Below, piece after piece: positions 3,617 to 33,679 of a DNA stretch of 64,000 bases (position 1 is the first letter of the stretch; each line of letters starts with the position of its first letter). The notes under the pieces were generated by a model. That model was not told where the DNA came from. It did no database searches and worked only from the letters and a program-made list of their open reading frames with translations. Both the position numbers and the translations under genes were made by a program. Location: the NCBI RefSeq assembly GCF_000196655.1, contig NC_014253.1, forward strand, positions 434,001 through 498,000, written 5' to 3'. This DNA is from Methanohalobium evestigatum Z-7303 (GTDB lineage Archaea; Halobacteriota; Methanosarcinia; Methanosarcinales; Methanosarcinaceae).

Positions 3617-4114
3617 ATGAAAAACAAATTGAACAATTTAATGCAAAACAATGAGGATGCAGTATCACCGGTCATCGGTGTCATACTGATGGTAGCAATC
3701 ACCGTCATCCTTGCAGCAGTAATAGGCTCATTCGTATTTGGAATGGGATCACCTGAACAGGCTCCTCAGGCTAGTATTAGAGGATCTGCGGAGACTATTG
3801 ATAGTAATAACTCTATAAAAATTGAGCATCAGGGTGGAGAAGGTATCGAATTAGATTCAGCTAGTACTAAAATAACTGTAGCTGGTGATAAAGTAGATTT
3901 GACTTCAAGTCCTGATAATAGACTTGAAACTGGAGATGTCCTTTATATATATAATAAAAGTGCCGGTAGCGACCTTAAACTTGCAAACAATACATCTATG
4001 AATAACTTAGGTATAGCAGGTTCAACTGAAACACCAACCAATGTCAAAATTATAGACGTTGCCAGTCAACAGTTGATAGCTGATATGAATGTACGGTTAC
4101 CAAACAATAACTAA
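3617..4114 (+). CDS. Type IV pilin (hybrid gene at left end of element)
   Basis: Archaeal type IV pilin, 165 residues. The short charged leader ends in NNEDAVSPVIG, the class III (prepilin) processing region, followed by the hydrophobic helix ILMVAITVILAAVIGSFVFG and a polar 115-residue head domain. Such pilins are cut by a prepilin peptidase and built into surface filaments. GGAGGT lies 8 nt before the ATG. Bases 3663-3746 are identical to 33231-33314, where a second pilin lacks its start. I infer that the first 46 bases are chromosomal and everything after the repeat was delivered by the integrated element. The head is only roughly 40% identical to the other copy by eye. Confidence 0.92.
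   Translation: MKNKLNNLMQNNEDAVSPVIGVILMVAITVILAAVIGSFVFGMGSPEQAPQASIRGSAETIDSNNSIKIEHQGGEGIELDSASTKITVAGDKVDLTSSPDNRLETGDVLYIYNKSAGSDLKLANNTSMNNLGIAGSTETPTNVKIIDVASQQLIADMNVRLPNNN
3663..3746 (+). repeat. Left att core (84-bp direct repeat)
   Basis: These 84 bases are identical to 33231-33314; the bases just outside differ on both sides (g/c on the left, g/a on the right). The repeat encodes the conserved processing region and hydrophobic helix of the pilin, from SPVIG to FVFGM. It is the likely recombination core. The true crossover must be shorter and cannot be located by eye. Confidence 0.8.
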
Positions 4115-8034: not shown

Positions 8035-8086
8035 CGGTCATTGGACCAGATGAAGACTTTTCTAAAAAAGCTAGGTGATTAAAACG

Positions 8087-9724
8087 ATGAGTGGAACTGT
8101 TAACTTAACAGAAAATTACAGTACAGAAGATAAAACAACCTATTCTAAAATTACAAACGATAAAAAAGTCGAAACTTCAAATATTCCAGATTTAACAGTT
8201 ATGAAACGCTGTAGACAGAATAACGAATTCTTTGATTCTCTATGCAATGGTTACATAACTGAATTAGGATATACTCAAGAGGGAGCAGTTAGAGAATTTA
8301 TTACGTTATTAGCTTCACAAACAAGAGATCCAAACCAAATAGAGAGAATATTTGATGGTTCAGGACTTAATAATGGATTTGATGATATAATAAAGAATAA
8401 AATCATCGATGAAGTGCTAGAAAATACTGAACCTACAAGAGCAAAAAAGGATGACCCATATAATAAATACTTTTCAAAAAAAGGAAAGTTCGTTGTTAAG
8501 TATCTTGCAGAAGAAATTTTAAGAGAAAACCATTTCTTTACATTAAAAGATACAAAAGAAGTCTACTATTATCAAAATGGTGTTTATCTACCAAATGGTA
8601 TTGATGAGATTTCCAAACAAGTACAAGATAAACTGGATGAACACTATAGAAAAAGTTACAAAAAAGAGGTTATAGATTATATAAAGACAAAAGCATTAGT
8701 AGACAGAGAATCTATAAACAATAATAAATACATAATAAATCTCAAAAACGGCCTTTATGATGTAAGTAAAGGCAAATTTCTACCACATTCACCAAAATAT
8801 ATGTCTACCATCCAGTTACCAGTGTATTATAAGCCAGAAGCTGAATGTCCAAATATTGAAAAATTCCTTTCTGATGTTACGAAGTCTGATAAAGATAAAC
8901 AATTGATATTTGAGTGGATTGGATATACACTAATTCCTAACACTAGGCTCCAAAAATTCGTGATGTTTTATGGCCCACGAGATGGTGGAAAAAGTGTCTT
9001 AATAAAGCTTATCACTTGTTTATTGGGCAACTATAATGTCAGCGGTGAAAGTCTACAAAACCTAGAGAATGATGATTTTTCAATAGCTAATCTAGAAGGA
9101 AAATTATTAAACGCATTTCCAGATCTTCCTGATTATGGTTTTTATCAGAATTCAGTTATTAAAATTATGACTGGTGATGATGGATATATTAGAGTAAATA
9201 TTAAAAAAGTACAACCATACAAGACTACAATCACAGCCCGTTTAATGTTTTCCACTAACAATCTACCTGTGATAAAAAACCCAGATGAAGCTTTCTTTAA
9301 AAGGTTGATGTTAATCGAATTTCCAAATACATTCCAGGGTGACAGCAAGGATGTAAACCTTATTGACAAATTAACAACATCTGAAGAATTATCAGGGTTG
9401 TTGAACAAAGCAATTGCAGCATTAGAAAGATTGCTTAAAAATGGTGAATTTTCTTATGACCTGAACCCTCTAGAAAACATGGAATTATACCAGAAACTTA
9501 GTAATCCTGTTGCTAAATTTGCTGATGAATGTGTTGGAGAAAGTAATGAATACACATTTAAAGTTGATATGTATAATGCCTATGTAGAATGGTGTGAAAA
9601 AGAAGATATTGTGCCTTTAAAAAAGAATGAATTTGGTAAACAATTCAAAAATCTAGGTTATAGAGATTCCAGGTTAAATACAGGTGATAGATCTTATTGT
9701 TGGGATGGGGTGTCACTTATTTAA
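8087..9724 (+). CDS. Replication protein, SF3 helicase (D5/P4-primase type)
   Basis: A 545-residue plasmid/virus-type replication protein of the D5-N plus superfamily-3 helicase group. Residues 1-130 are a poorly conserved N-terminus, 130-270 a D5-N-like region, and 290-440 the helicase: Walker A GPRDGGKS (about residue 302), Walker B-like LLNAFPDLPD and motif C ARLMFSTNNLP with the sensor asparagine. A C-terminal winged-helix-like segment follows. It should unwind DNA at the element's origin. No archaeo-eukaryotic primase signature was seen. The ATG at 8087 is chosen because AGGTGAT lies 7-8 bases upstream; a GTG at 8075 has no such site. Repeats flank the gene on both sides. Confidence 0.85.
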   Translation: MSGTVNLTENYSTEDKTTYSKITNDKKVETSNIPDLTVMKRCRQNNEFFDSLCNGYITELGYTQEGAVREFITLLASQTRDPNQIERIFDGSGLNNGFDDIIKNKIIDEVLENTEPTRAKKDDPYNKYFSKKGKFVVKYLAEEILRENHFFTLKDTKEVYYYQNGVYLPNGIDEISKQVQDKLDEHYRKSYKKEVIDYIKTKALVDRESINNNKYIINLKNGLYDVSKGKFLPHSPKYMSTIQLPVYYKPEAECPNIEKFLSDVTKSDKDKQLIFEWIGYTLIPNTRLQKFVMFYGPRDGGKSVLIKLITCLLGNYNVSGESLQNLENDDFSIANLEGKLLNAFPDLPDYGFYQNSVIKIMTGDDGYIRVNIKKVQPYKTTITARLMFSTNNLPVIKNPDEAFFKRLMLIEFPNTFQGDSKDVNLIDKLTTSEELSGLLNKAIAALERLLKNGEFSYDLNPLENMELYQKLSNPVAKFADECVGESNEYTFKVDMYNAYVEWCEKEDIVPLKKNEFGKQFKNLGYRDSRLNTGDRSYCWDGVSLI

Positions 9725-10490: not shown

Positions 10491-10530
10491 AATACAATGA
10501 ACTTCCACTTTAGCTTAACTATATTTCAAT

Positions 10531-10654
10531 TAAAGTCGAGATTATGGTTATATCTAATAAATTCTCCACTTTAATTAAAATGTATTCTTATTAAAGTCGA
10601 GATACATAGTAAAATTTTTCGACTTTAGTAAACCTATATTTTAATTAAAGTCGA
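10531..10654. repeat. TAAAGTCGA sites and hairpin copy 2
   Basis: TAAAGTCGA occurs at 10531, 10592 and 10646, and its complement TCGACTTTA at 10619. The last two form the same 9-bp hairpin as at 6431-6466. Spacing between the direct sites is about 55-60 bp. Binding sites for a replication or copy-control protein are likely. Confidence 0.55.
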
Positions 10655-10789
10655 GAACTATCCTGAAACCATTCTAAAAGAATGAATTCACTAACTATTC
10701 TCATTATGAAATTGGTATATTAACAGTTTTCCAGAAGAAATCAAGTATATATGTACTTCTTATGAAAACTAAGAATATTCTATGAAAAT

Positions 10790-22141: not shown

Positions 22142-24181
22142 ATGAGTAATTTTCAGGAAAAAGCTAATTTTATTTGGAGCGTGGCTGACGAGGTACTAAG
22201 AGACGACTTTAAACGTGGGAAATACCGGGATGTAATTCTTCCATTTACTGTTTTAAGACGTGTGGAATGTGTACTGGAACCTACCAAGGATAATGTAATA
22301 CAAACTTACGAAAATGTCAAGGACAAAGTCAAAGACCCGCACAATGCACTTTGCCATGCTGCAGGTCATAGTTTTTACAACACATCACCGTATGACCTCA
22401 AGAAACTGCTGGATGACCCGAGCAACATAGGTCAGAACTTCAAGTCGTACATAAACAGTTTCTCCGAGAATATGCGAGATATCTTCGACAAGTTCTATCT
22501 CTGGAACTACATCGACCAGTTGATTGAAGATAACCTGCTGTACATGTTGCTTGAGAAGTTCTCAAACGTGGATTTACACCCTGATTCTGTAAGCAACCAT
22601 GAGATGGGGTATATCTTCGAGGAATTGATAAGACGGTTCAATGAGGACGTCAATGAGAACCCTGGTGAGCACTTCACACCAAGAGAAGTTATCAGGCTCA
22701 TGGTCAATCTAATTTTTTATCAGGATGAAGCAAAGCTCGGACACAATACGCCCATCAGGACAATCTACGACCCTGCATGCGGTACTGGCGGAATGCTGAC
22801 TATCGCCAATGACCATATCCTCAAGGAAATCAATTCTAATGCTGATATCTGGCTGTTTGGACAGGAAGTAAATCCTGAAACATTTGCGATTGCAAAATCT
22901 GACATGATGCTTAAAGGAAACGACCGTGATGCTGAAAATATCAAAATGGGTTCTGTATTCTCAAATGACGGTCACCCAAACGAGACCTTTAATTATATGC
23001 TTTCAAATCCACCGTTTGGTAAGGACTGGAAAAAAGAACAGAACTTCATACTGGAGGAAGCCAAAAGTGCCAGTAGTAGATTTACTGCAGGACTACCAAG
23101 GAAAGATGATGGCCAGCTCCTGTTCCTGCAGCACATGATTTCAAAGATGAAGAGACCTGAAGATGGAGGAAGCAGGATTGCGGTTGTTACGAATGGTTCT
23201 CCACTATTTACGGGTGATGCTGGTTCAGGTGAAAGTGAAATCAGACGCTGGATAATCGAGAATGACTGGCTGGAAGCGATTGTTGCACTACCTGAGCAGT
23301 TGTTCTACAATACTGGCATCAATACCTATGTCTGGATAGTCACAAACCGCAAGGAAGATCACAGGAAAGGCAAGATACAGCTCGTTGATGCCAGAGAGTG
23401 CTATCAGAAGATGAGGAAGAGCCTCGGAGAAAAGAGACACGAGATTTCTTCTGAACAAATTGACACGATAACAAACCTGCATAACAATTTCAATGAAGGT
23501 CAGTATTCACAAATTTTTGACAACCACGAATTCGGATACAGGAAAATTACCATAGAACAACCACTCCGATTGAGCTTCCAGGTCACTCCTGAAAGGATAG
23601 AACAACTGAAGGAACAGAAAGCATTCAAGAACCTCGCTGTCAGCAAGAAGAGGAAGAATACAGAGGAGAAAGAAAAGGAAGAAGCTGAAGGTCAGAAACT
23701 GCAGGACTCCATAATCGAGATGCTATCCGAGATGGACAGCGAGAAGTTTTACAAGAACCGTGATGAATTCTGGAAGGTGCTCAATGATAATCTCAAGAAG
23801 CACGGTATAAACATAAATAATACTGTGGAAAAAGCTATTTTGGATTCGATGTCTGAGCGTGATGAAACAGCTGATATCTGTGTTGACAGCAAAAAACGGT
23901 GGGAACCTGACTCACAGCTCCGGGATTATGAGAACGTGCCGCTGGATGAGGATATCTATGATTACTTCGAACGTGAAGTGAAACCTCATGTGCCTGAAGC
24001 ATGGATTGATGAATCAAAGACCGACCAATACGATAACGATGTTGGAAAAGTCGGATACATAATCAATTTCAACCGCTATTTCTACGAGTACGAACCACCA
24101 AGACCTCTGGAAGAGATAGAATCAGACATCAACGACCTTGAGAATGAAATTCTTGAACTGCTTCAGGAGGTTTCGCATTGA
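22142..24181 (+). CDS. hsdM: Type I restriction-modification methyltransferase
   Basis: HsdM subunit, 679 residues, longer than the usual 500-550 because of a C-terminal extension. The N-terminal helical domain ends near residue 140. The N6-adenine methyltransferase core has PACGTGGML near residue 210 (SAM binding) and SNPPFG near residue 289 (catalytic NPPF). With HsdS it methylates adenine in a split recognition site. It overlaps hsdS by four bases. Its codon use and G+C content are clearly higher than in the neighbouring element genes, so this operon probably arrived separately. Confidence 0.95.
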   Translation: MSNFQEKANFIWSVADEVLRDDFKRGKYRDVILPFTVLRRVECVLEPTKDNVIQTYENVKDKVKDPHNALCHAAGHSFYNTSPYDLKKLLDDPSNIGQNFKSYINSFSENMRDIFDKFYLWNYIDQLIEDNLLYMLLEKFSNVDLHPDSVSNHEMGYIFEELIRRFNEDVNENPGEHFTPREVIRLMVNLIFYQDEAKLGHNTPIRTIYDPACGTGGMLTIANDHILKEINSNADIWLFGQEVNPETFAIAKSDMMLKGNDRDAENIKMGSVFSNDGHPNETFNYMLSNPPFGKDWKKEQNFILEEAKSASSRFTAGLPRKDDGQLLFLQHMISKMKRPEDGGSRIAVVTNGSPLFTGDAGSGESEIRRWIIENDWLEAIVALPEQLFYNTGINTYVWIVTNRKEDHRKGKIQLVDARECYQKMRKSLGEKRHEISSEQIDTITNLHNNFNEGQYSQIFDNHEFGYRKITIEQPLRLSFQVTPERIEQLKEQKAFKNLAVSKKRKNTEEKEKEEAEGQKLQDSIIEMLSEMDSEKFYKNRDEFWKVLNDNLKKHGININNTVEKAILDSMSERDETADICVDSKKRWEPDSQLRDYENVPLDEDIYDYFEREVKPHVPEAWIDESKTDQYDNDVGKVGYIINFNRYFYEYEPPRPLEEIESDINDLENEILELLQEVSH

Positions 24182-25563
24182 GCGGGGTTGTGCAGGAACA
24201 GAGACAGAAATTTTTCGATACTTCAGGATTCAAACCTTATCCTGAGTATAAAGATTCAGGTATTGAATGGTTGGGTGAAATTCCTGAGCATTGGGATGTA
24301 AAGCAATTACGAAGAGTTATAAAATCGTTAAAAAATGGAACAACAGCTCCTCAATTAGACAGTGGAACTACAAATTATCCAGTTACAAGGATAGAGACAA
24401 TATCAAACGGGTATATAAACTACAATAATGTAGGATATCTTAAAGAAAATGATGTAGATAAAAGATATATTCTAAATAAAGATGACATACTTATATCTCA
24501 TATAAATAGTTTAGAATATATTGGAAATTGTGCGATATACAAAGATAATGAAACACTTGTACATGGAATGAATCTTCTTAGATTAATTCCTGATGATAAT
24601 ATAATCCCTGACTTTCTTATTTATTATCTAAAAAGTAAAAACTTTAAATATTCGGCTAGGATACATGCTAAGCCAGCTATTAATCAAGCAAGTGTATCAT
24701 CAACTGTTTTAAAATCGTTGAAATTCTCTTACCCTAGTAATTTTAATGAGCAAAAATCCATAGCCAATTTCCTCGATAAAGAGACCCATAAAATCGATAA
24801 ACTGATAGAGAAAAAGCAGCGACTTGTTGAACTACTGGAAGAGAAACGCTCTGCTCTAATCAATCATACAGTGGCCAAAGGTCTTGACCCTGATGTTGAG
24901 ATGAAGGATTCAGGTATCGAATGGCTGGGTGAGATTCCTGAGCATTGGGATGTTGTTAAACTAAAATATTTACTTCGTTCTAAAGTAACTGATGGACCTC
25001 ATGAATCACCTGCATTCGTTGATAATGGAATTCCATTTTTATCAGCTGATTCTATTCAAAATGGTAAACTAAAATTTGAAAATTGTAGATATGTTCCATA
25101 TGAAGACCACATTAGATACATCAGAAAATGCAAACCAGAAAAATATGATTTATTACTAGGAAAAGCCGCATCTGTAGGAAAAGTTGCATTGGTTGATGTT
25201 GATTTTGAATTTAGTATTTGGTCACCATTAGCATTAATAAAACCTGACACACGAGAATTAAATTCGAAACTACTATACTACGTTTTAAGGAGTAGATACG
25301 TTCAAAAACAAATAGATATGTTAAACCATACAAACACTCAAGACAATTTAGGGATGAAAGAAATAGAAAACTTGAAAATAATTTTGCCCTCCGTATCAGA
25401 ACAAAAACAAATAGCAGATTATCTCGACCAAAGAACCTCAAAGATTGACGAACTAATAAATAAAATCAACCATCAGATAGAATACCTTAAAGAATACCGA
25501 ACAGCCCTCATTTCTGCAGCAGTCACTGGAAAGATCGATGTTAGAGGAGAGGAGCAAAAGTGA
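24178..25563 (+). CDS. hsdS: Type I restriction specificity subunit
   Basis: HsdS subunit, 461 residues. Two target-recognition domains each begin with the repeated WLGEIPEHWDV (near residues 30 and 247) and each is followed by a conserved spacer helix (KIDKLIEKKQRLVELLEEKR and the TSKIDELINKINHQIEYLKE copy). The domains are A+T-rich while the spacers match the G+C level of hsdM, the usual sign of domain exchange. TTG 24178 overlaps the hsdM stop. The recognition sequence cannot be read from the protein. Confidence 0.95.
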   Translation: MSGVVQEQRQKFFDTSGFKPYPEYKDSGIEWLGEIPEHWDVKQLRRVIKSLKNGTTAPQLDSGTTNYPVTRIETISNGYINYNNVGYLKENDVDKRYILNKDDILISHINSLEYIGNCAIYKDNETLVHGMNLLRLIPDDNIIPDFLIYYLKSKNFKYSARIHAKPAINQASVSSTVLKSLKFSYPSNFNEQKSIANFLDKETHKIDKLIEKKQRLVELLEEKRSALINHTVAKGLDPDVEMKDSGIEWLGEIPEHWDVVKLKYLLRSKVTDGPHESPAFVDNGIPFLSADSIQNGKLKFENCRYVPYEDHIRYIRKCKPEKYDLLLGKAASVGKVALVDVDFEFSIWSPLALIKPDTRELNSKLLYYVLRSRYVQKQIDMLNHTNTQDNLGMKEIENLKIILPSVSEQKQIADYLDQRTSKIDELINKINHQIEYLKEYRTALISAAVTGKIDVRGEEQK

Positions 25564-28526
25564 GAACCACCGTTTCTGAGAACACATTCGAAAACGACAT
25601 AGTGCAGACCCTTGTCAATCAGAAAGGATACATCCACAGAAAAAACAGTGACTACGATAAAGAACTCTGCATGGACCCTGAGATGGTTATTGAGTTCATT
25701 TGGGCTACACAATCAAAGGAGTGGGAGAAACTCGAGAAGCAATACGGTGAACAGGTGAAAGAGAGATTTCTGGAAAGACTGCAGAAGAACATCGAGAGAC
25801 GTGGAACACTTGATGTGCTGAAGAAAGGTATCAAAGACAGGGGCTGCAGGTTCGACCTTGTGTATTTCAAACCCGAAACCACACTGAATGTAGAACATCA
25901 GGACAGATATAAAGCAAACAGGTTCTCGGTTATACAGCAGCTCCACTACAACACAAAAAACGAGAAGTCTATCGACCTTGTCCTTTTCATCAATGGATTA
26001 CCCATTATCACATCAGAACTGAAGAATCCGCTCAACGAACAAAATGTCGAGCATGCGATACACCAGTACCGCAAAGATAGAAGCCCTAAAGAACCACTTC
26101 TGAGCCCGAGGAGATGCTTTGTACATTTTGCTGTCGATACCGACCTTGTCTACATGGCAACCAAACTGAAAGGAGAATCTACCAAATTCCTGCCTTTCAA
26201 CAGAGGTTATGAGAACGGTTCAGGAAATCCACCACCAGAAGACCCGGAGAAATACAAGACATACTATCTTTGGGAAGAAATCTGGGATAAGGATATGCTT
26301 CTGGATATAATCTCAGACTATATCGTGCTTCTGGATGATGACGAATACATATTCCCGAGATACCATCAGCTCAAAGCAGTAAATTCGATGATTGAGAATG
26401 CAAGGCTCAACGGTCCGGGTCACAGGTATCTCGTACAGCACAGTACAGGAAGCGGAAAGAGTTTTACTATCGCATGGCTCTGCAACAAGTTGTCAGGACT
26501 GCACGATGAAAATAACAACCGGATATTCGATTCGATCATCGTGATTACAGACAGGAGAGTGCTCGACCAGCAGTTAAGCAGCACGATGTTTGAATTCGAA
26601 CAGGTCAGAGGAACCGTGGAGTGGATAGACAGCAACAAGAAATCCGAACAGCTCAAACAGGCACTTGAGAGCAACAAGGAAATCATCGTGGTCACATTGC
26701 AGACATTCCCATTCCTTGTAGATGAAGCGAACCAGTTAAGCGACAGAAACTTCGCCATAGTGGTAGATGAAGCTCATTCATCTCAATCTGGAGAGACCGC
26801 CAGAGGAAGCAGAAAGGTACTCGTGTCAGCTGATGATGTGCAGTACGAAGATGAGATGGAGAAGGATGTCGAGGATGTCATAAACAGTGAGATCGAGAAA
26901 ACTGTAGGACCTGCAAAGAACATCAGCTACTTTGCATTCACCGCAACACCCAAACAGAAAACATTGGAACTTTTCGGAACCAAAATGCCTGATGGTAGCT
27001 ATGAGCCGTATCACTTGTATTCTATGAAACAGGCGATAGAAGAAGGGTTCATACTCAATCCACTTGAGAACTACACCACATTCGAGACCTATTTCGAGCT
27101 CAAAAAGAAAATCGAAGATGATCCTGAATACGATAGAACCACAGCATACGGGCTTTTAAGGTCTCATGTTGATTCTAGCAAACCCGCCATCAGTAAAAAG
27201 ACATCGATTATGCTGGATCATTTCTACAACAATATAATGACCCGTATAGGCGGCAAAGCCAAAGCGATGGTTGTTACAAGTTCCAGAGCCAATGCAGTCA
27301 AATACAAACTGGAATTTGATAAACAGATAAACGATAATGGATATCCTTTCGAAGCACTCGTAGCATTCTCGGGCACCGTTGAAGGTAATGATGTCGAAAA
27401 GGTCTACAGCGACTATGAGTTCACAGAATCAAAGATGAACGGTTTTCCGGATAGCAAGACATCCCAGTATTTCGACGAGAACGATGATTACAGGATACTT
27501 ATAGTTGCCAACAAGTTCCAGACAGGTTTCGACCAGCCGCTTCTACACACCATGTATGTGGATAAAAAACTGGGTGGTGTGAATGCTGTACAGACATTGA
27601 GCCGGTTGAACAGGATACATCCTGAAAAACACGACACAATGGTTCTCGATTTTGCCAATGATGCAGAAGATATAAAGAAATCATTCGAGAACTTCCATGT
27701 GAAAACTACATTGAGCGAAGGCACAGACCCGAACAAGCTTCACGATTATGAAGATGCATTGAAGGATTTCAGGATATTTACAGAAGATGATGTAGAAAAA
27801 TTCGCTCAAGAATACTTCTCAACTTCAGGTACCCAGGCTAAACTCTACTCAATACTTGAACCCGTGATACAGGAATGGGAAAGTAGACCTGAAGAGGAAA
27901 GGAAGGATTTCAAGAAGCAGATGCAGTCATTCACCAGATTGTATGCTTTCCTGTCTCACATAATGACGTTTAGAGATACCGAGCTTGAGAAACTTTATCA
28001 GTTCTCCCGGTTCCTTGTAAAGAAACTGAAAATCGGTTATAAACGCCTGCCTACTGAGATTCTGGATTGTGTAGACCTTGAATCACTTCGTATCAGTGAA
28101 GACAGCAAAGGCAGTATCGTACTTACAGATAAAGAAGGTGAACTGAAACCAATTTCTGATATGGGGACTGGCACTACCAGAGAAGAAGAACTTGCACCGC
28201 TTTCTGAGATACTGAATGAACTCAATGAGCGATTTGGAACCGAATTTACAGAAGACGACAGAGTAGCTCAGGTCATAGAAGATATGAGAGACCGCTTGCT
28301 CAAGACGGAGAAACTTCAGAGAGCTGCAAACCCTGAGATTAATTCGAAGGATAATTTTGCAAGGACGTTTGAATGGTTCTTTGATGATGAAGTTGAGAAC
28401 CTTATCAATACGAGCCTTGACTTATACAAAAAAATGAGCGATGATGGTGATTTACGACATAATGTTAAGCAGGCATTGTTGAAGGACATTTATAGTAAAT
28501 TGGTTGAATCTGACAATAGAAAATAA
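25560..28526 (+). CDS. hsdR: Type I restriction endonuclease subunit
   Basis: HsdR subunit, 988 residues, the DNA translocase and nuclease. The N-terminal nuclease has LVLFINGLPIITSELKNP (Asp and Glu-x-Lys) near residue 150. The SF2 helicase motor has HSTGSGKS near residue 295, VVDEAHSSQ near residue 401, TATP near residue 462 and a later FQTGFDQP. A C-terminal helical domain contacts HsdM. GTG 25560 overlaps the hsdS stop. No frameshift is seen, so the system looks intact. The order M-S-R in one operon is followed by a TBP gene 14 bp downstream. Confidence 0.95.
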   Translation: MRTTVSENTFENDIVQTLVNQKGYIHRKNSDYDKELCMDPEMVIEFIWATQSKEWEKLEKQYGEQVKERFLERLQKNIERRGTLDVLKKGIKDRGCRFDLVYFKPETTLNVEHQDRYKANRFSVIQQLHYNTKNEKSIDLVLFINGLPIITSELKNPLNEQNVEHAIHQYRKDRSPKEPLLSPRRCFVHFAVDTDLVYMATKLKGESTKFLPFNRGYENGSGNPPPEDPEKYKTYYLWEEIWDKDMLLDIISDYIVLLDDDEYIFPRYHQLKAVNSMIENARLNGPGHRYLVQHSTGSGKSFTIAWLCNKLSGLHDENNNRIFDSIIVITDRRVLDQQLSSTMFEFEQVRGTVEWIDSNKKSEQLKQALESNKEIIVVTLQTFPFLVDEANQLSDRNFAIVVDEAHSSQSGETARGSRKVLVSADDVQYEDEMEKDVEDVINSEIEKTVGPAKNISYFAFTATPKQKTLELFGTKMPDGSYEPYHLYSMKQAIEEGFILNPLENYTTFETYFELKKKIEDDPEYDRTTAYGLLRSHVDSSKPAISKKTSIMLDHFYNNIMTRIGGKAKAMVVTSSRANAVKYKLEFDKQINDNGYPFEALVAFSGTVEGNDVEKVYSDYEFTESKMNGFPDSKTSQYFDENDDYRILIVANKFQTGFDQPLLHTMYVDKKLGGVNAVQTLSRLNRIHPEKHDTMVLDFANDAEDIKKSFENFHVKTTLSEGTDPNKLHDYEDALKDFRIFTEDDVEKFAQEYFSTSGTQAKLYSILEPVIQEWESRPEEERKDFKKQMQSFTRLYAFLSHIMTFRDTELEKLYQFSRFLVKKLKIGYKRLPTEILDCVDLESLRISEDSKGSIVLTDKEGELKPISDMGTGTTREEELAPLSEILNELNERFGTEFTEDDRVAQVIEDMRDRLLKTEKLQRAANPEINSKDNFARTFEWFFDDEVENLINTSLDLYKKMSDDGDLRHNVKQALLKDIYSKLVESDNRK

Positions 28527-28539
28527 TAGATGGGTTTAA

Positions 28540-29058
28540 ATGGAAATTGTAAATGTAGTTGCTACAGTCAAACTAAATTCTTATTTAGATTTGGCGAGTT
28601 TAGAAGATGCACTTCAAGATACACAAGTTGTATCTACAAGTAAAGTATGGCTTAAAATGAGACTAATGCCTGAAAACTATTATGTAGCTTTCTATAAATC
28701 TGGCAAGTTTCTCATAACAGGTGTAAAATCGACTGAAGATATATCTACCATTTCCAATAGAGTATTAGATATTTTAAAAAATGCTGGTATTGATGTTGAT
28801 ATTGAAGATACTTATATACAAAATATCGTTGCAGTCGATAAAATAGAGATGAACTCAACGCTTGAAAAAATAATTTACAACCTTGACCCTTCAAAGAGTA
28901 GCTATGAACCAGAACAATTTCCAGGATTGATATACAAAAATTGGGGTGCTAGTTTTCTTCTCTTTTCAAGTGGGAAAGTTGTAATTACAGGTGTGAAAGA
29001 TGAGAATTATTTGGATGATTTAATTACTAAATTCAAAAATGAGATATCATTTGAATAA
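28540..29058 (+). CDS. Divergent TATA-binding protein on mobile element
   Basis: A 172-residue protein with the two-repeat TBP fold. Repeat 1 (about 1-85) has IVNVVATVKL and AFYKSGKFLITGVKS; repeat 2 (about 86-172) has YIQNIVAVDKI, YEPEQFPGLIYK and LLFSSGKVVITGVKD. These are the standard TBP signatures. Normal archaeal TBPs are about 180-185 residues. In repeat 2 both DNA-kinking phenylalanines are kept (EQFPG and LLFSSGK). In repeat 1 the matching positions appear to be tyrosine and tryptophan or lysine (hand alignment). It follows hsdR by 14 bp and is probably in the same operon. It may be an alternative basal factor for element genes. Confidence 0.88.
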   Translation: MEIVNVVATVKLNSYLDLASLEDALQDTQVVSTSKVWLKMRLMPENYYVAFYKSGKFLITGVKSTEDISTISNRVLDILKNAGIDVDIEDTYIQNIVAVDKIEMNSTLEKIIYNLDPSKSSYEPEQFPGLIYKNWGASFLLFSSGKVVITGVKDENYLDDLITKFKNEISFE

Positions 29059-29060
29059 AA

Positions 29061-29789
29061 TCATCCCAAAGGAAATTCATAAGTATCTTTGTATTTTTTG
29101 TAGCAATTGTAACATGTTGGCTTTGCTTTACTGATATTAGATTTATTCGATTTGCCACATATATGACAAGCACTTTCTTCTATATTTTCATCTCCTTTTT
29201 TCTTCCAAGTGCTAAAACATTTTTTACAATAAGGATACATAGGGTTTAATGATATCGAATCCCCACAGCGAATACAATATCCATTATCTGATTTGTTAGA
29301 ATTGTTCTTTGTATTACTTTGTTTCTTAAAAACGTCAGACGTAGATTTGTCATTACTATTTATATCCTCTTCACTGTATCTAATAAGTCTTTTTGCTTCA
29401 TCATAGATATCAGAATATAATTTAGGGTCTGAATCTTTTGAAACATATATTCCCATTTCATTATTATGAACTTCTGAATAACGGTACATGTTCATTGATG
29501 TTATCAAAGCTTCTTTATCATTTAAGTAACACTTAGCATGCAGATTTTTGCAAAAATTAGTACGTATAGAATTTAGAGACTTTAACCAATTATTTTCTTC
29601 TGGTTTTAAGTCATTTTTTCCATATATAACTCTAATATCTATTTTCATTCGGTCTTTATCTTGAATCAAATCTTTTAACCTTTCATTAATTTGGAGATAT
29701 GGGCTTACAATAATTAATTTATCATCAGCATTTTTGATTATCTGTTCTAAATGATGAGATACTCCTGTTGTACTACAAAATTCAGTCAT
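29061..29789 (-). CDS. PLD-family nuclease with zinc fingers
   Basis: A 242-residue protein. Residues 1-140 are one phospholipase D-type domain with LIIVSPYLQIN and the catalytic HAKCYLND (HxKxxxxD) followed by ALITSMNMY and NNEMGI. One HKD motif means it should act as a dimer, as in Nuc-type nucleases. After a Ser/Asn/Lys linker the C-terminus has two zinc-binding units, CIRCG...CKKC and CHICGK...CYNC. DNA or RNA cleavage guided by the fingers is likely. It converges on the TBP gene with only 2 bp between them. Confidence 0.82.
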   Translation of the reverse strand: MTEFCSTTGVSHHLEQIIKNADDKLIIVSPYLQINERLKDLIQDKDRMKIDIRVIYGKNDLKPEENNWLKSLNSIRTNFCKNLHAKCYLNDKEALITSMNMYRYSEVHNNEMGIYVSKDSDPKLYSDIYDEAKRLIRYSEEDINSNDKSTSDVFKKQSNTKNNSNKSDNGYCIRCGDSISLNPMYPYCKKCFSTWKKKGDENIEESACHICGKSNKSNISKAKPTCYNCYKKYKDTYEFPLG

Positions 29790-32290: not shown

Positions 32291-33139
32291 TCAATCAAAT
32301 ATGGTTTTTAATTTATCTTCCAAGTTGATTTGTCCATCTTTCTTTATTTTATATTGGAATCCACAGCTTGGGCACTGTAACTTTATGTAATCCGGTTTTG
32401 CTGAAAATACTTTATCATAGACCTTTGTCCTATCATCTATTGCAAATTGAAGATATATTGCAGTGGTTGCCAAATCTGTATGTCCAAGTTGCAATTGTAA
32501 TGTGCGTATATCCATTCCATTTTGGATACAGTAGATTGCATGACCGTGGCGGAATTTATGGGCGCTTAACCAAGGGATTTTAGATTCTTTTTTTAACTTG
32601 TTAATGAAAACTTTCGCACCATTTTCATTAAGGTTGATTATTTTGTCATCAGGTTTTAACGAATATCTGTTGATATGTTCCTGTATTATATCCAAAGTTT
32701 TTTGGTCAACAACAACAGTTCTTGGTTTCAATTCTTCTGTTTTTACACTTTTACCATAAATCGCTATTAATCTATCTTTAAAAGCAATATCTTTCACTCG
32801 GATACCATGATGATATTTTTGGATATACGTAGAGAAAAACCGACATTCTTCATCAATACATATTCTATCATCTTTTGCAACGCTCCATTTTGGACAATTG
32901 CCTTTCCTTTTACGATTCCCTGGAAATAAGCACTGGGTATAAACTCTTCTTGGCACACCAACGATTTCAGAAATTCGTGCACCAGTGAAAAACAGAAGTC
33001 TCACAAGTAACGAATAATCACCTTCTCTGGCTTTTTTCAATGCACAATCTTCTTCTAGGTCTTTTGCTAATTGTTCCAAGTCCAAAAAATCCTCATATTT
33101 TACATAAGCGCTTAAGTTTTTTATTGCTTCATGAGCCAT
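32291..33139 (-). CDS. Tyrosine recombinase (element integrase)
   Basis: A 282-residue site-specific tyrosine recombinase. The N-terminal SAM-like arm-binding part is short. The catalytic domain has LLFFTGARISEI (first Arg), an insert with a cysteine cluster (CLF...CPKW...CIDEECRF), LSAHKFRHGHA (His-x-x-Arg), LGHTDLATTAIYLQ (His and Tyr). A zinc-ribbon half LQCPSCGFQYKI follows the Tyr. All catalytic residues are present. ATG 33139 has AAAGGTGA a few bases upstream; the longer frame to 33190 lacks one. The gene begins 92 bp from the right att repeat, so it should carry out integration and excision. Confidence 0.9.
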   Translation of the reverse strand: MAHEAIKNLSAYVKYEDFLDLEQLAKDLEEDCALKKAREGDYSLLVRLLFFTGARISEIVGVPRRVYTQCLFPGNRKRKGNCPKWSVAKDDRICIDEECRFFSTYIQKYHHGIRVKDIAFKDRLIAIYGKSVKTEELKPRTVVVDQKTLDIIQEHINRYSLKPDDKIINLNENGAKVFINKLKKESKIPWLSAHKFRHGHAIYCIQNGMDIRTLQLQLGHTDLATTAIYLQFAIDDRTKVYDKVFSAKPDYIKLQCPSCGFQYKIKKDGQINLEDKLKTIFD

Positions 33140-33230
33140 ATTTTCACCTTTTAAATTTTTAAATGGTTTTAAAAAGCAAAATAAAAGCAATGCTATTTTT
33201 AAATTGCAAAATAAGCTCTAAAAATTGGCC

Positions 33231-33314
33231 TATCACCGGTCATCGGTGTCATACTGATGGTAGCAATCACCGTCATCCTTGCAGCAGTAATAGGCTCATT
33301 CGTATTTGGAATGG
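33231..33314 (+). repeat. Right att core (84-bp direct repeat)
   Basis: Identical to 3663-3746. It marks the right boundary of the integrated element, next to the integrase gene. Confidence 0.8.
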
Positions 33315-33679
33315 AAAATCCTGAATCTGCACCGCAGGCGAGTATCCAAGGCAGTGCTTATTCTGACTCTGACGGTGACGACATAGTAATGATTAGTCAC
33401 CAAGGAGGTGAAGAAATAGATTTACATAATAATGTCAGGATAACAATGAGTGGAAATGACGTCAATATTGGATCCGACAATGTTTCAAAATGGTTTAAAG
33501 CTGGTGATAAACTTTATATTATCTCCAACAGTAGCAGTTATTTCTTGGTTAACTCTACTAATTTAAATGCCGTTAATGCTGACTCTGGAATTGCCACCGA
33601 TAACAACAGACCAGAAGTCAATATTATCGACATACCAAGTCAACAACCAATCGCCAACTTCAATTTAAGATTCCAATAA
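33231..33679 (+). pseudogene. Pilin 3' part without start (displaced native pilin)
   Basis: Begins exactly at the 84-bp repeat and encodes the pilin helix and a 115-residue head domain (ENPESAPQASIQG to the end). The frame upstream hits a stop within 30 bases and contains no usual start codon, so it is probably silent. Joined to the first 46 bases of the left pilin it would give an intact 164-residue pilin in frame, the expected pre-integration gene. An internal ATG at 33257 could in theory start a shortened product without the processing site. Confidence 0.8.

What the first reader, a model, noticed from the sequence alone, without database searches (positions are those of the whole stretch)
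28540..29058. TATA-binding protein carried on the element, in the hsd operon
A recognisable but divergent TBP lies 14 bp after hsdR. Repeat 2 keeps both DNA-kinking phenylalanines; repeat 1 seems to have lost both. A general transcription factor as cargo could redirect host transcription or drive element genes from non-standard promoters. Its link with a type I restriction operon is, to my knowledge, not a described arrangement.
Basis: partly seen in the sequence, partly recalled or inferred. Interest (0 to 1): 0.75.

Follow-up and report, generated by a model that had tools for sequence, protein, structure and literature searches.

The report
TATA-binding protein partnered with restriction systems
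The gene is a full-length but altered copy of TBP, the protein that marks where archaeal genes start, and its relatives sit beside DNA-methylating anti-virus systems again and again across archaea and even in two archaeal viruses, which suggests that these 'spare' TBPs serve defence systems rather than general transcription.

Summary
Confirmed and extended. Window 28540-29058 encodes a complete two-repeat TBP (Pfam 114 bits; AlphaFold saddle, pLDDT 92.5, TM about 0.9 to solved TBPs), 32% identical to the host's own TBP and placed 13 bp after hsdR. Repeat 1 lacks both kinking phenylalanines, but it is specialised, not decayed: an invariant Trp and Tyr replace them in all 29 relatives, and dN/dS is about 0.1. 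Repeat 2 keeps its phenylalanines, DNA contacts and the YEPEQFPGL stirrup that in ordinary TBP binds TFB. The hsd linkage recurs: 27 of 29 relatives lie beside RM or BREX-like genes. In a survey of 59 haloarchaeal genomes, 19 of 24 loci with divergent TBPs have such genes within 6 kb against 0 of 30 canonical loci. Partners are unrelated: type I, IIG, BREX, ARMADA-like, and RM genes of haloviruses HRTV-9 and HJTV-2. TBPs lacking the N-terminal pair are known (haloarchaeal TbpC-like, thought possibly non-functional), and TBPs occur in TOTE/TALON systems; I found no report of this linkage. TBP' is optional: about 12% of one HsdR family carry it. Most likely it is a defence-dedicated initiation or regulatory factor using host TFB; a sensor or subunit role is the main rival. 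Function is untested.

The parts
28540..29058 (+). restriction-linked TBP (TBP'), 172 aa, two TBP repeats
   Evidence: Pfam PF00352 114 bits, both repeats; AF2 pLDDT 92.5, pTM 0.83; Foldseek TM about 0.9 to TBP
28540..28803 (+). TBP repeat 1, altered: W37 (28648-28650) and Y52 (28693-28695) in place of the kinking Phe pair
   Evidence: alignment tables, W and Y in 29 of 29 relatives
28804..29055 (+). TBP repeat 2, intact: N95, V97, YEPEQFPGL stirrup (E123, E125, F127), F142, T150
22142..24181 (+). hsdM, type I DNA methyltransferase
   Evidence: Pfam HsdM_N and N6_Mtase; PADLOC MTase_I 955 bits
24178..25563 (+). hsdS, specificity subunit (overlaps hsdM by 4 bp)
   Evidence: Pfam Methylase_S, two stretches
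25560..28526 (+). hsdR, restriction subunit (overlaps hsdS by 4 bp)
   Evidence: Pfam HSDR_N, SWI2_SNF2, T1R_D3-like
29061..29789 (-). PLD-family protein, tail to tail with TBP' (2 bp gap); membership of the system uncertain
   Evidence: Pfam PLDc_2 41 bits
32291..33190 (-). tyrosine recombinase of the element
   Evidence: Pfam Phage_integrase 62 bits
3663..3777 (+). left copy of the pilin-gene repeat, inside the intact pilin gene 3617-4114; probable element end
   Evidence: the repeat finder D1; sequence
33231..33345 (+). right copy of the pilin-gene repeat (91%), inside a 5'-truncated pilin gene; probable element end
   Evidence: the repeat finder D1; sequence

Best explanation
Identity (shown): a full-length, purifying-selected TBP paralogue of a class that is habitually linked to methylation-based restriction and BREX-like defence loci. 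Mechanism (inferred): it is a defence-dedicated initiation or regulatory factor. Repeat 2 and the C-terminal stirrup still grip the upstream half of a TATA element and host TFB, while the remodelled repeat 1 (W37, Y52) changes affinity, bending or sequence choice for the downstream half. It would set when or how strongly a subset of promoters fires, those of the defence locus or of the invader, in the way BrxR/CapW WYL regulators are attached to unrelated bacterial defence systems. Confidence about 0.95 for the identity, 0.9 for the defence linkage, 0.4 for this mechanism; the score given is for the mechanism.
For: TBP fold and both repeats. DNA-contact Asn and Val largely kept, and the stirrup Glu pair and repeat-2 Phe pair kept, in 28-29 of 29. 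dN/dS 0.08-0.15 in halophile pairs, like a canonical pair at 0.125. Linkage 27 of 29. Unbiased survey 19 of 24 loci against 0 of 30, Fisher 2e-10, not corrected for phylogeny. Partners are unrelated systems, as expected of a regulator. It is optional: 10 of 82 HsdR loci in one family carry it, so it is not a required enzyme subunit. No TFB gene in any locus, so host TFB would have to serve.
Against: No DNA or TFB binding is shown. In one type I family the hsdM promoter region is nearly identical with TBP' (L107) and without (L134), so TBP' is not needed for that promoter. [quoted passage not shown] TBPs also occur in bacterial TALON systems (PMC12458937), where TBP/TFB-type initiation is not expected.
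Confidence: 0.4

Rival explanations
1. TBP' is a working accessory of the defence machinery itself: it binds bent or AT-rich DNA, or promoters of invading DNA, and recruits or licenses the methylase/nuclease/helicase, a role that TBP in TOTE-type conflict systems may also have.
For: Translational coupling inside operons: hsdS-TBP'-hsdM with overlaps in Methanoregula, MTase-TBP-helicase-TBP with overlaps in Haloarcula and Natronorubrum, MTase-helicase-TBP on pNRC100. A second TBP in several loci has lost DNA contacts but keeps its stirrup. TBP is found in TALON/TOTE systems.
Against: Absent from most close relatives of the same RM enzymes; in many haloarchaeal loci it is on the opposite strand, tail to tail with the hsd operon; the retained TFB stirrup is unexplained.
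Confidence: 0.3
2. TBP' is a decoy or repressor: it occupies TATA elements or TFB without productive bending and damps transcription of invading DNA, or of the RM genes until modification is complete.
For: Intact DNA and TFB contacts with altered bending residues; companion TBP2 keeps the stirrup but has lost the DNA-contact Asn and Thr.
Against: No expression or binding data; a decoy would be expected to be costly to host promoters too.
Confidence: 0.15
3. Hitch-hiking: TBP paralogues accumulate in islands and plasmids that also collect RM genes, with no functional link.
For: Window TBP' has GC3 0.21 against 0.48 for hsdM/hsdR, so it did not share a long history with them; the loci are mobile.
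Against: Canonical-type TBPs, including copies on small contigs or plasmids (L170, L171) and the pNRC200 copy, have no RM neighbour; overlapping-gene operons with unrelated systems; a conserved signature under purifying selection.
Confidence: 0.12
4. A non-functional, decaying TBP, as suggested as one option for TbpC.
For: Loss of the N-terminal Phe pair; tbpC is dispensable in Halobacterium and its transcript was not detected (PMC4230888).
Against: dN/dS about 0.1; invariant Trp and Tyr; intact reading frames in distant species.
Confidence: 0.03

Closest known systems
Haloarchaeal TbpC-like TBPs (Becker et al. 2014, PMC4230888)
   Same: TBP that lost the N-terminal Phe pair and keeps the C-terminal pair; accessory, patchy, dispensable
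   Different: Described as possibly non-functional or specialised, with no mention of restriction (0 hits). Here in methanogens too, with a W/Y signature, and tied to RM loci
TOTE (TPR, OB, TBP, Effector) and TALON conflict systems (as described in PMC12458937)
   Same: TBP encoded in a conflict-system operon with nuclease or helicase effectors
   Different: The window operon has no TPR-cold-shock/OB gene; partners are complete type I RM, BREX, IIG or ARMADA-like systems; hosts are archaea with TBP/TFB transcription
BrxR/CapW WYL-domain regulators (PMC9122601, PMC9122589)
   Same: One regulator type co-localised with many unrelated defence systems
   Different: Unrelated fold; bacterial; likeness is in mode only, by inference
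Canonical archaeal TBP (e.g. Methanocaldococcus, Sulfolobus)
   Same: Saddle fold, repeat 2, stirrup, DNA-contact residues
   Different: 32-35% identity; repeat-1 Phe pair absent; optional, mobile, defence-linked
Controller (C) proteins of type II RM systems (from general knowledge)
   Same: Proposed role: regulator encoded with an RM system
   Different: C proteins are small helix-turn-helix repressors/activators; no homology

Membership tests
TBP (PF00352) | two tandem TBP repeats above the curated cut-off | tested here: met
   114 bits against 22.9, two stretches
TBP (PF00352) | saddle fold | tested here: met
   pLDDT 92.5; TM 0.84-0.91 to solved TBPs
TBP (PF00352) | four intercalating phenylalanines | tested here: not met
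   repeat 2 both present, repeat 1 both replaced; sub-variants of TBP lacking a pair are known and still filed as TBP
TBP (PF00352) | binds and bends TATA DNA, recruits TFB | not testable with these tools
   only residues inspected: stirrup and repeat-2 contacts kept
TbpC-like haloarchaeal TBP | N-terminal Phe pair absent, C-terminal pair present | tested here: met
TbpC-like haloarchaeal TBP | groups with Halobacterium tbpC in a tree | tested here: inconclusive
   the tree leaves TBP', TBPb and L097 unresolved and holds no confirmed tbpC; NRC-1 VNG_RS12735 shows the Phe pattern but its identity as tbpC was not confirmed
TOTE/TALON conflict system | TBP gene in the operon | tested here: met
TOTE/TALON conflict system | TPR-OB (cold-shock domain) gene in the operon | tested here: not met
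   Pfam of hsdM, hsdS, hsdR, TBP', PLD and adjacent genes shows none; not checked for every relative
TOTE/TALON conflict system | TALON: YprA-like helicase with NERD nuclease | tested here: not met
   not in the window operon; a DruE/YprA-like helicase does lie beside TBP' in L088
Type I RM system (the host operon) | HsdM, HsdS and HsdR encoded together | tested here: met

The most novel reading that the evidence does not exclude
Archaeal restriction, BREX and ARMADA-like loci use TBP-fold proteins as sensors of promoter or transcription activity on invading DNA: TBP' (often with a partner TBP whose DNA-contact half is degenerate) binds TATA/TFB sites on unmodified DNA and directs the methylase/nuclease/helicase to them. 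Much of the haloarchaeal 'TBP expansion' would then be immune machinery and not gene regulation.
Probability: 0.2. Interest if true: 0.92.

Novelty: new variant of a known kind. Interest (0 to 1): 0.76.

Why it matters
Extra TBPs of archaea, above all haloarchaea, are usually read as a means of rewiring global transcription. Here a large share of the divergent ones proves to be restriction- and BREX-linked: 19 of 24 loci in 59 genomes, against none of 30 canonical loci. That gives a testable role to a protein class set aside as possibly non-functional, joins basal transcription to antiviral defence in archaea, and warns against counting these genes as general transcription factors. Because such genes are dispensable in laboratory haloarchaea, the question can be settled by simple deletions and phage assays.

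Tried and rejected
Chromosomal-TBP fragment: rejected. Decay: rejected. Viral hallmark gene: no relative in IMG/VR contigs, though two haloviruses carry TBP beside RM genes. First single-sequence scan of genome contigs found nothing; the profile scan did. PADLOC gives no match for the TBP. Partner TFB gene in the loci: none. A dedicated hsdM promoter in TBP'-bearing loci: no support. An obligate subunit of the RM enzyme: not supported, since most relatives of the same enzymes lack it. TOTE membership: no TPR-OB gene. My first 'paralogue controls' L094-L097 turned out to be RM-linked themselves, and L093, first taken as canonical, is divergent by Phe pattern and not RM-linked. The original TOTE paper was not held.

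Full report
What is there. The window is G000:C1:434001-498000 of a 2.41 Mb, two-contig genome. Its relatives are Methanosarcinaceae by gene content, and from memory the contig length 2,242,317 fits Methanohalobium evestigatum Z-7303; that name is an inference. ORF 28540-29058 (+) encodes 172 aa and starts 13 bases after hsdR. Pfam finds both TBP repeats at 2.8e-33, and the best solved relatives are archaeal TBPs at 1e-22. The AlphaFold2 model from a ten-row alignment has pLDDT 92.5 and pTM 0.83, and Foldseek puts it on TBP-DNA and TBP-TFIIB structures at TM about 0.9. The host has its own ordinary TBP elsewhere, 32% identical. hsdM, hsdS and hsdR overlap by 4 bp each and are complete type I subunits.

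The element. A 115-bp repeat (91%) and a second 108-bp repeat (93%) put two copies of a pilin-gene segment 29.6 kb apart, at 3663-3777/33231-33345 and 4163-4270/33701-33808; a core of about 85 bp is identical and lies in the conserved N-terminal segment of the pilin gene. A tyrosine recombinase ends 41 bp inside the right copy. So the TBP gene does lie on an integrated element. It has GC 30% and GC3 0.21, like the rest of the element, while hsdM and hsdR have 42.5% and GC3 0.48. The TBP and these hsd genes therefore probably joined recently.

Relatives. In 112 Methanosarcinaceae genomes three others carry a close relative at 52-62% identity; no further genome of 238 in the class does at E 1e-25. 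A profile scan of GTDB genomes found two in Methanoregulaceae. With eight rows including haloarchaeal RM-linked TBPs (A5), 393 genomes of the phylum gave 12 members, separated from all ordinary TBPs (150 bits or more against 136 or less), and 392 haloarchaeal genomes gave 21 members in 20 genomes of 16 genera. In the tree the window's own group has 8 rows (SH-aLRT 99) and the main haloarchaeal group 19 rows (98), with L088/L114 apart; whether all are one clade is unresolved. I call them TBP'.

Sequence anatomy. All 29 TBP' compared have Trp at the position two residues after the first kinking Phe of repeat 1 and Tyr at the second; none has Phe at either. Repeat 2 keeps both Phe in 29 of 29; the stirrup Glu pair is kept except for one Gln, and the contact Asn is kept. 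In ordinary TBP the C-terminal stirrup is the TFB contact (general knowledge of TBP-TFIIB/TFB structures). Pairwise dN/dS is 0.08-0.15, against 0.125 for a canonical pair. So repeat 1 is remodelled, not decaying. Several haloarchaeal loci carry a second TBP that keeps the stirrup and repeat-2 Phe but has lost the contact Asn and Thr residues; in MTase-TBPa-helicase-TBPb operons TBPa has an intact repeat-1 Phe pair and a degenerate repeat 2, and TBPb the reverse.

Linkage to restriction. Gene maps of 29 TBP' loci show RM, methylase or BREX genes in 27; the exceptions are L037, where a transposase cuts the gene, and L042. Arrangements: hsdM-S-R-TBP' (window); hsdR-S-M-RNaseIII-like-TBP' (L036); hsdS-TBP'-hsdM, all overlapping (L043); TBP'-hsdM-S-R-SprT (L103, L104); TBP' tail to tail with SprT-hsdR-S-M (many haloarchaea); beside BrxA/B/C, PglX and an Mrr-type nuclease (L038); 33 bp after brxL in a BREX operon with pglZ (L087); between a DrmMI-like methylase with DrmD/BrxHII-like helicase and a DruE/YprA-like helicase, that is ARMADA-like (L088, L114); beside IIG-type methylases (L084, L109, L113). 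Looser relatives repeat it: MTase-TBP-helicase-TBP in Haloarcula japonica and Natronorubrum, MTase-helicase-TBP on pNRC100 of Halobacterium NRC-1 and in Halorientalis marina, a 'TbpC' after an MTase and a type I R subunit in Halobacterium DL1, a TBP 16 bp after a type IIG enzyme in halovirus HRTV-9, and one beside an N4-cytosine methylase and Eco29kI in HJTV-2.

Unbiased test. Since the first set was found through TBP' itself, I searched 59 evenly drawn haloarchaeal genomes with an ordinary TBP. Genes fall into two groups, 219 bits or more and 138 or less. With one set of RM/methylase/helicase queries, 19 of 24 divergent loci have a match within 6 kb and 0 of 30 canonical loci do (Fisher 2e-10). 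One divergent locus (L159) is the source of two of the queries; without it the count is 18 of 23. The test is not corrected for phylogeny, some queries came from TBP' loci, four divergent loci rest on weak or partial matches (two of which, L166 and L168, count as linked), and the best control, other accessory genes of the same islands, was not run. Canonical-type TBPs on small contigs or plasmids (L170, L171) and on pNRC200 show no RM neighbour.

The link is one-way. TBP' nearly always has an RM-like partner, but most RM loci lack TBP'. In one HsdR family 10 of 82 loci carry TBP' within 10 kb, and of 20 sampled loci without TBP' only one has another TBP. In Methanosarcinaceae 1 of 19 HsdR relatives has it. 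So TBP' is an optional accessory, not an obligate subunit.

Mechanism. Shown: fold, residues, selection, linkage, optional status. Inferred: function. A regulator used by many unrelated systems fits best, by analogy with WYL regulators that co-localise with diverse defence systems (PMC9122601), and the kept stirrup fits a partnership with host TFB; no locus carries a TFB gene. Against it, hsdM upstream regions are nearly identical with and without TBP' in one pair (L107, L134), and both Phe pairs are needed for efficient bending by Methanocaldococcus TBP (PMC4041446). A sensor or subunit role is the main rival, supported by overlapping genes and by TBP in TOTE/TALON systems (PMC12458937).

Prior knowledge. 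Becker et al. 2014 (PMC4230888) described haloarchaeal TbpC-like TBPs without the N-terminal Phe pair, dispensable and possibly non-functional; the word restriction does not occur in that paper's text. A survey of archaeal RM systems (PMC10609329) has no hit for TATA. Searches for TBP with type I restriction, hsdM, BREX or defence found no report of the link, within an open-access library only. The TOTE paper itself was not available.

Verdict. Observation confirmed; interpretation partly supported and widened. The protein type is known, TBP in conflict systems is known in another form, and the recurrent pairing of TBP' with type I RM, IIG, BREX and ARMADA-like systems appears undescribed: a new variant of a known kind, with interest set by how directly it can be tested.

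Noticed in passing
window 3617-4114, 33257-33679, 32291-33190: The element is integrated in a type IV pilin gene; the identical ~85 bp core is the conserved N-terminal segment, so integration or excision could swap pilin C-terminal domains.
   Followed up: partly
L082:8961-9488, L101:10414-10947, L102:8961-9494, L106:2433-2963, L115:10433-10966: A second TBP beside TBP' in haloarchaeal type I loci has lost the DNA-contact Asn/Thr residues but keeps YEPEQFP and repeat-2 Phe.
   Followed up: partly
L045:6478-10546 and L046:2821-6858: MTase-TBPa-helicase-TBPb operons with overlapping genes; the two TBPs have complementary intact and degenerate repeats.
   Followed up: partly
L152 (HRTV-9) and L153 (HJTV-2): Two haloviruses carry a TBP beside their own restriction-modification genes.
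   Followed up: partly
L146:2077-7540 (pNRC100): A TBP of the model strain Halobacterium NRC-1 (VNG_RS12735) overlaps a helicase gene downstream of a methyltransferase; a second methyltransferase gene lies just upstream across ISH27.
   Followed up: partly
L151:6980-8851 and L148:12997-14234: Plasmid-borne exodeoxyribonuclease VII genes (xseA, xseB) close to TBP genes and McrBC in haloarchaea.
   Followed up: no
L036:10235-10678: A stand-alone RNase III-like domain protein between hsdM and TBP'.
   Followed up: no
window 24235-24299 and 24889-24953: Internal repeat in hsdS, as expected of two half-site recognition modules.
   Followed up: no
window 10498-10656: Three AT-rich 44-nt repeats with inverted arms downstream of the large ORF 8075-9724 (which looks like a viral-type primase/helicase, not tested); possible replication origin of the element.
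   Followed up: no
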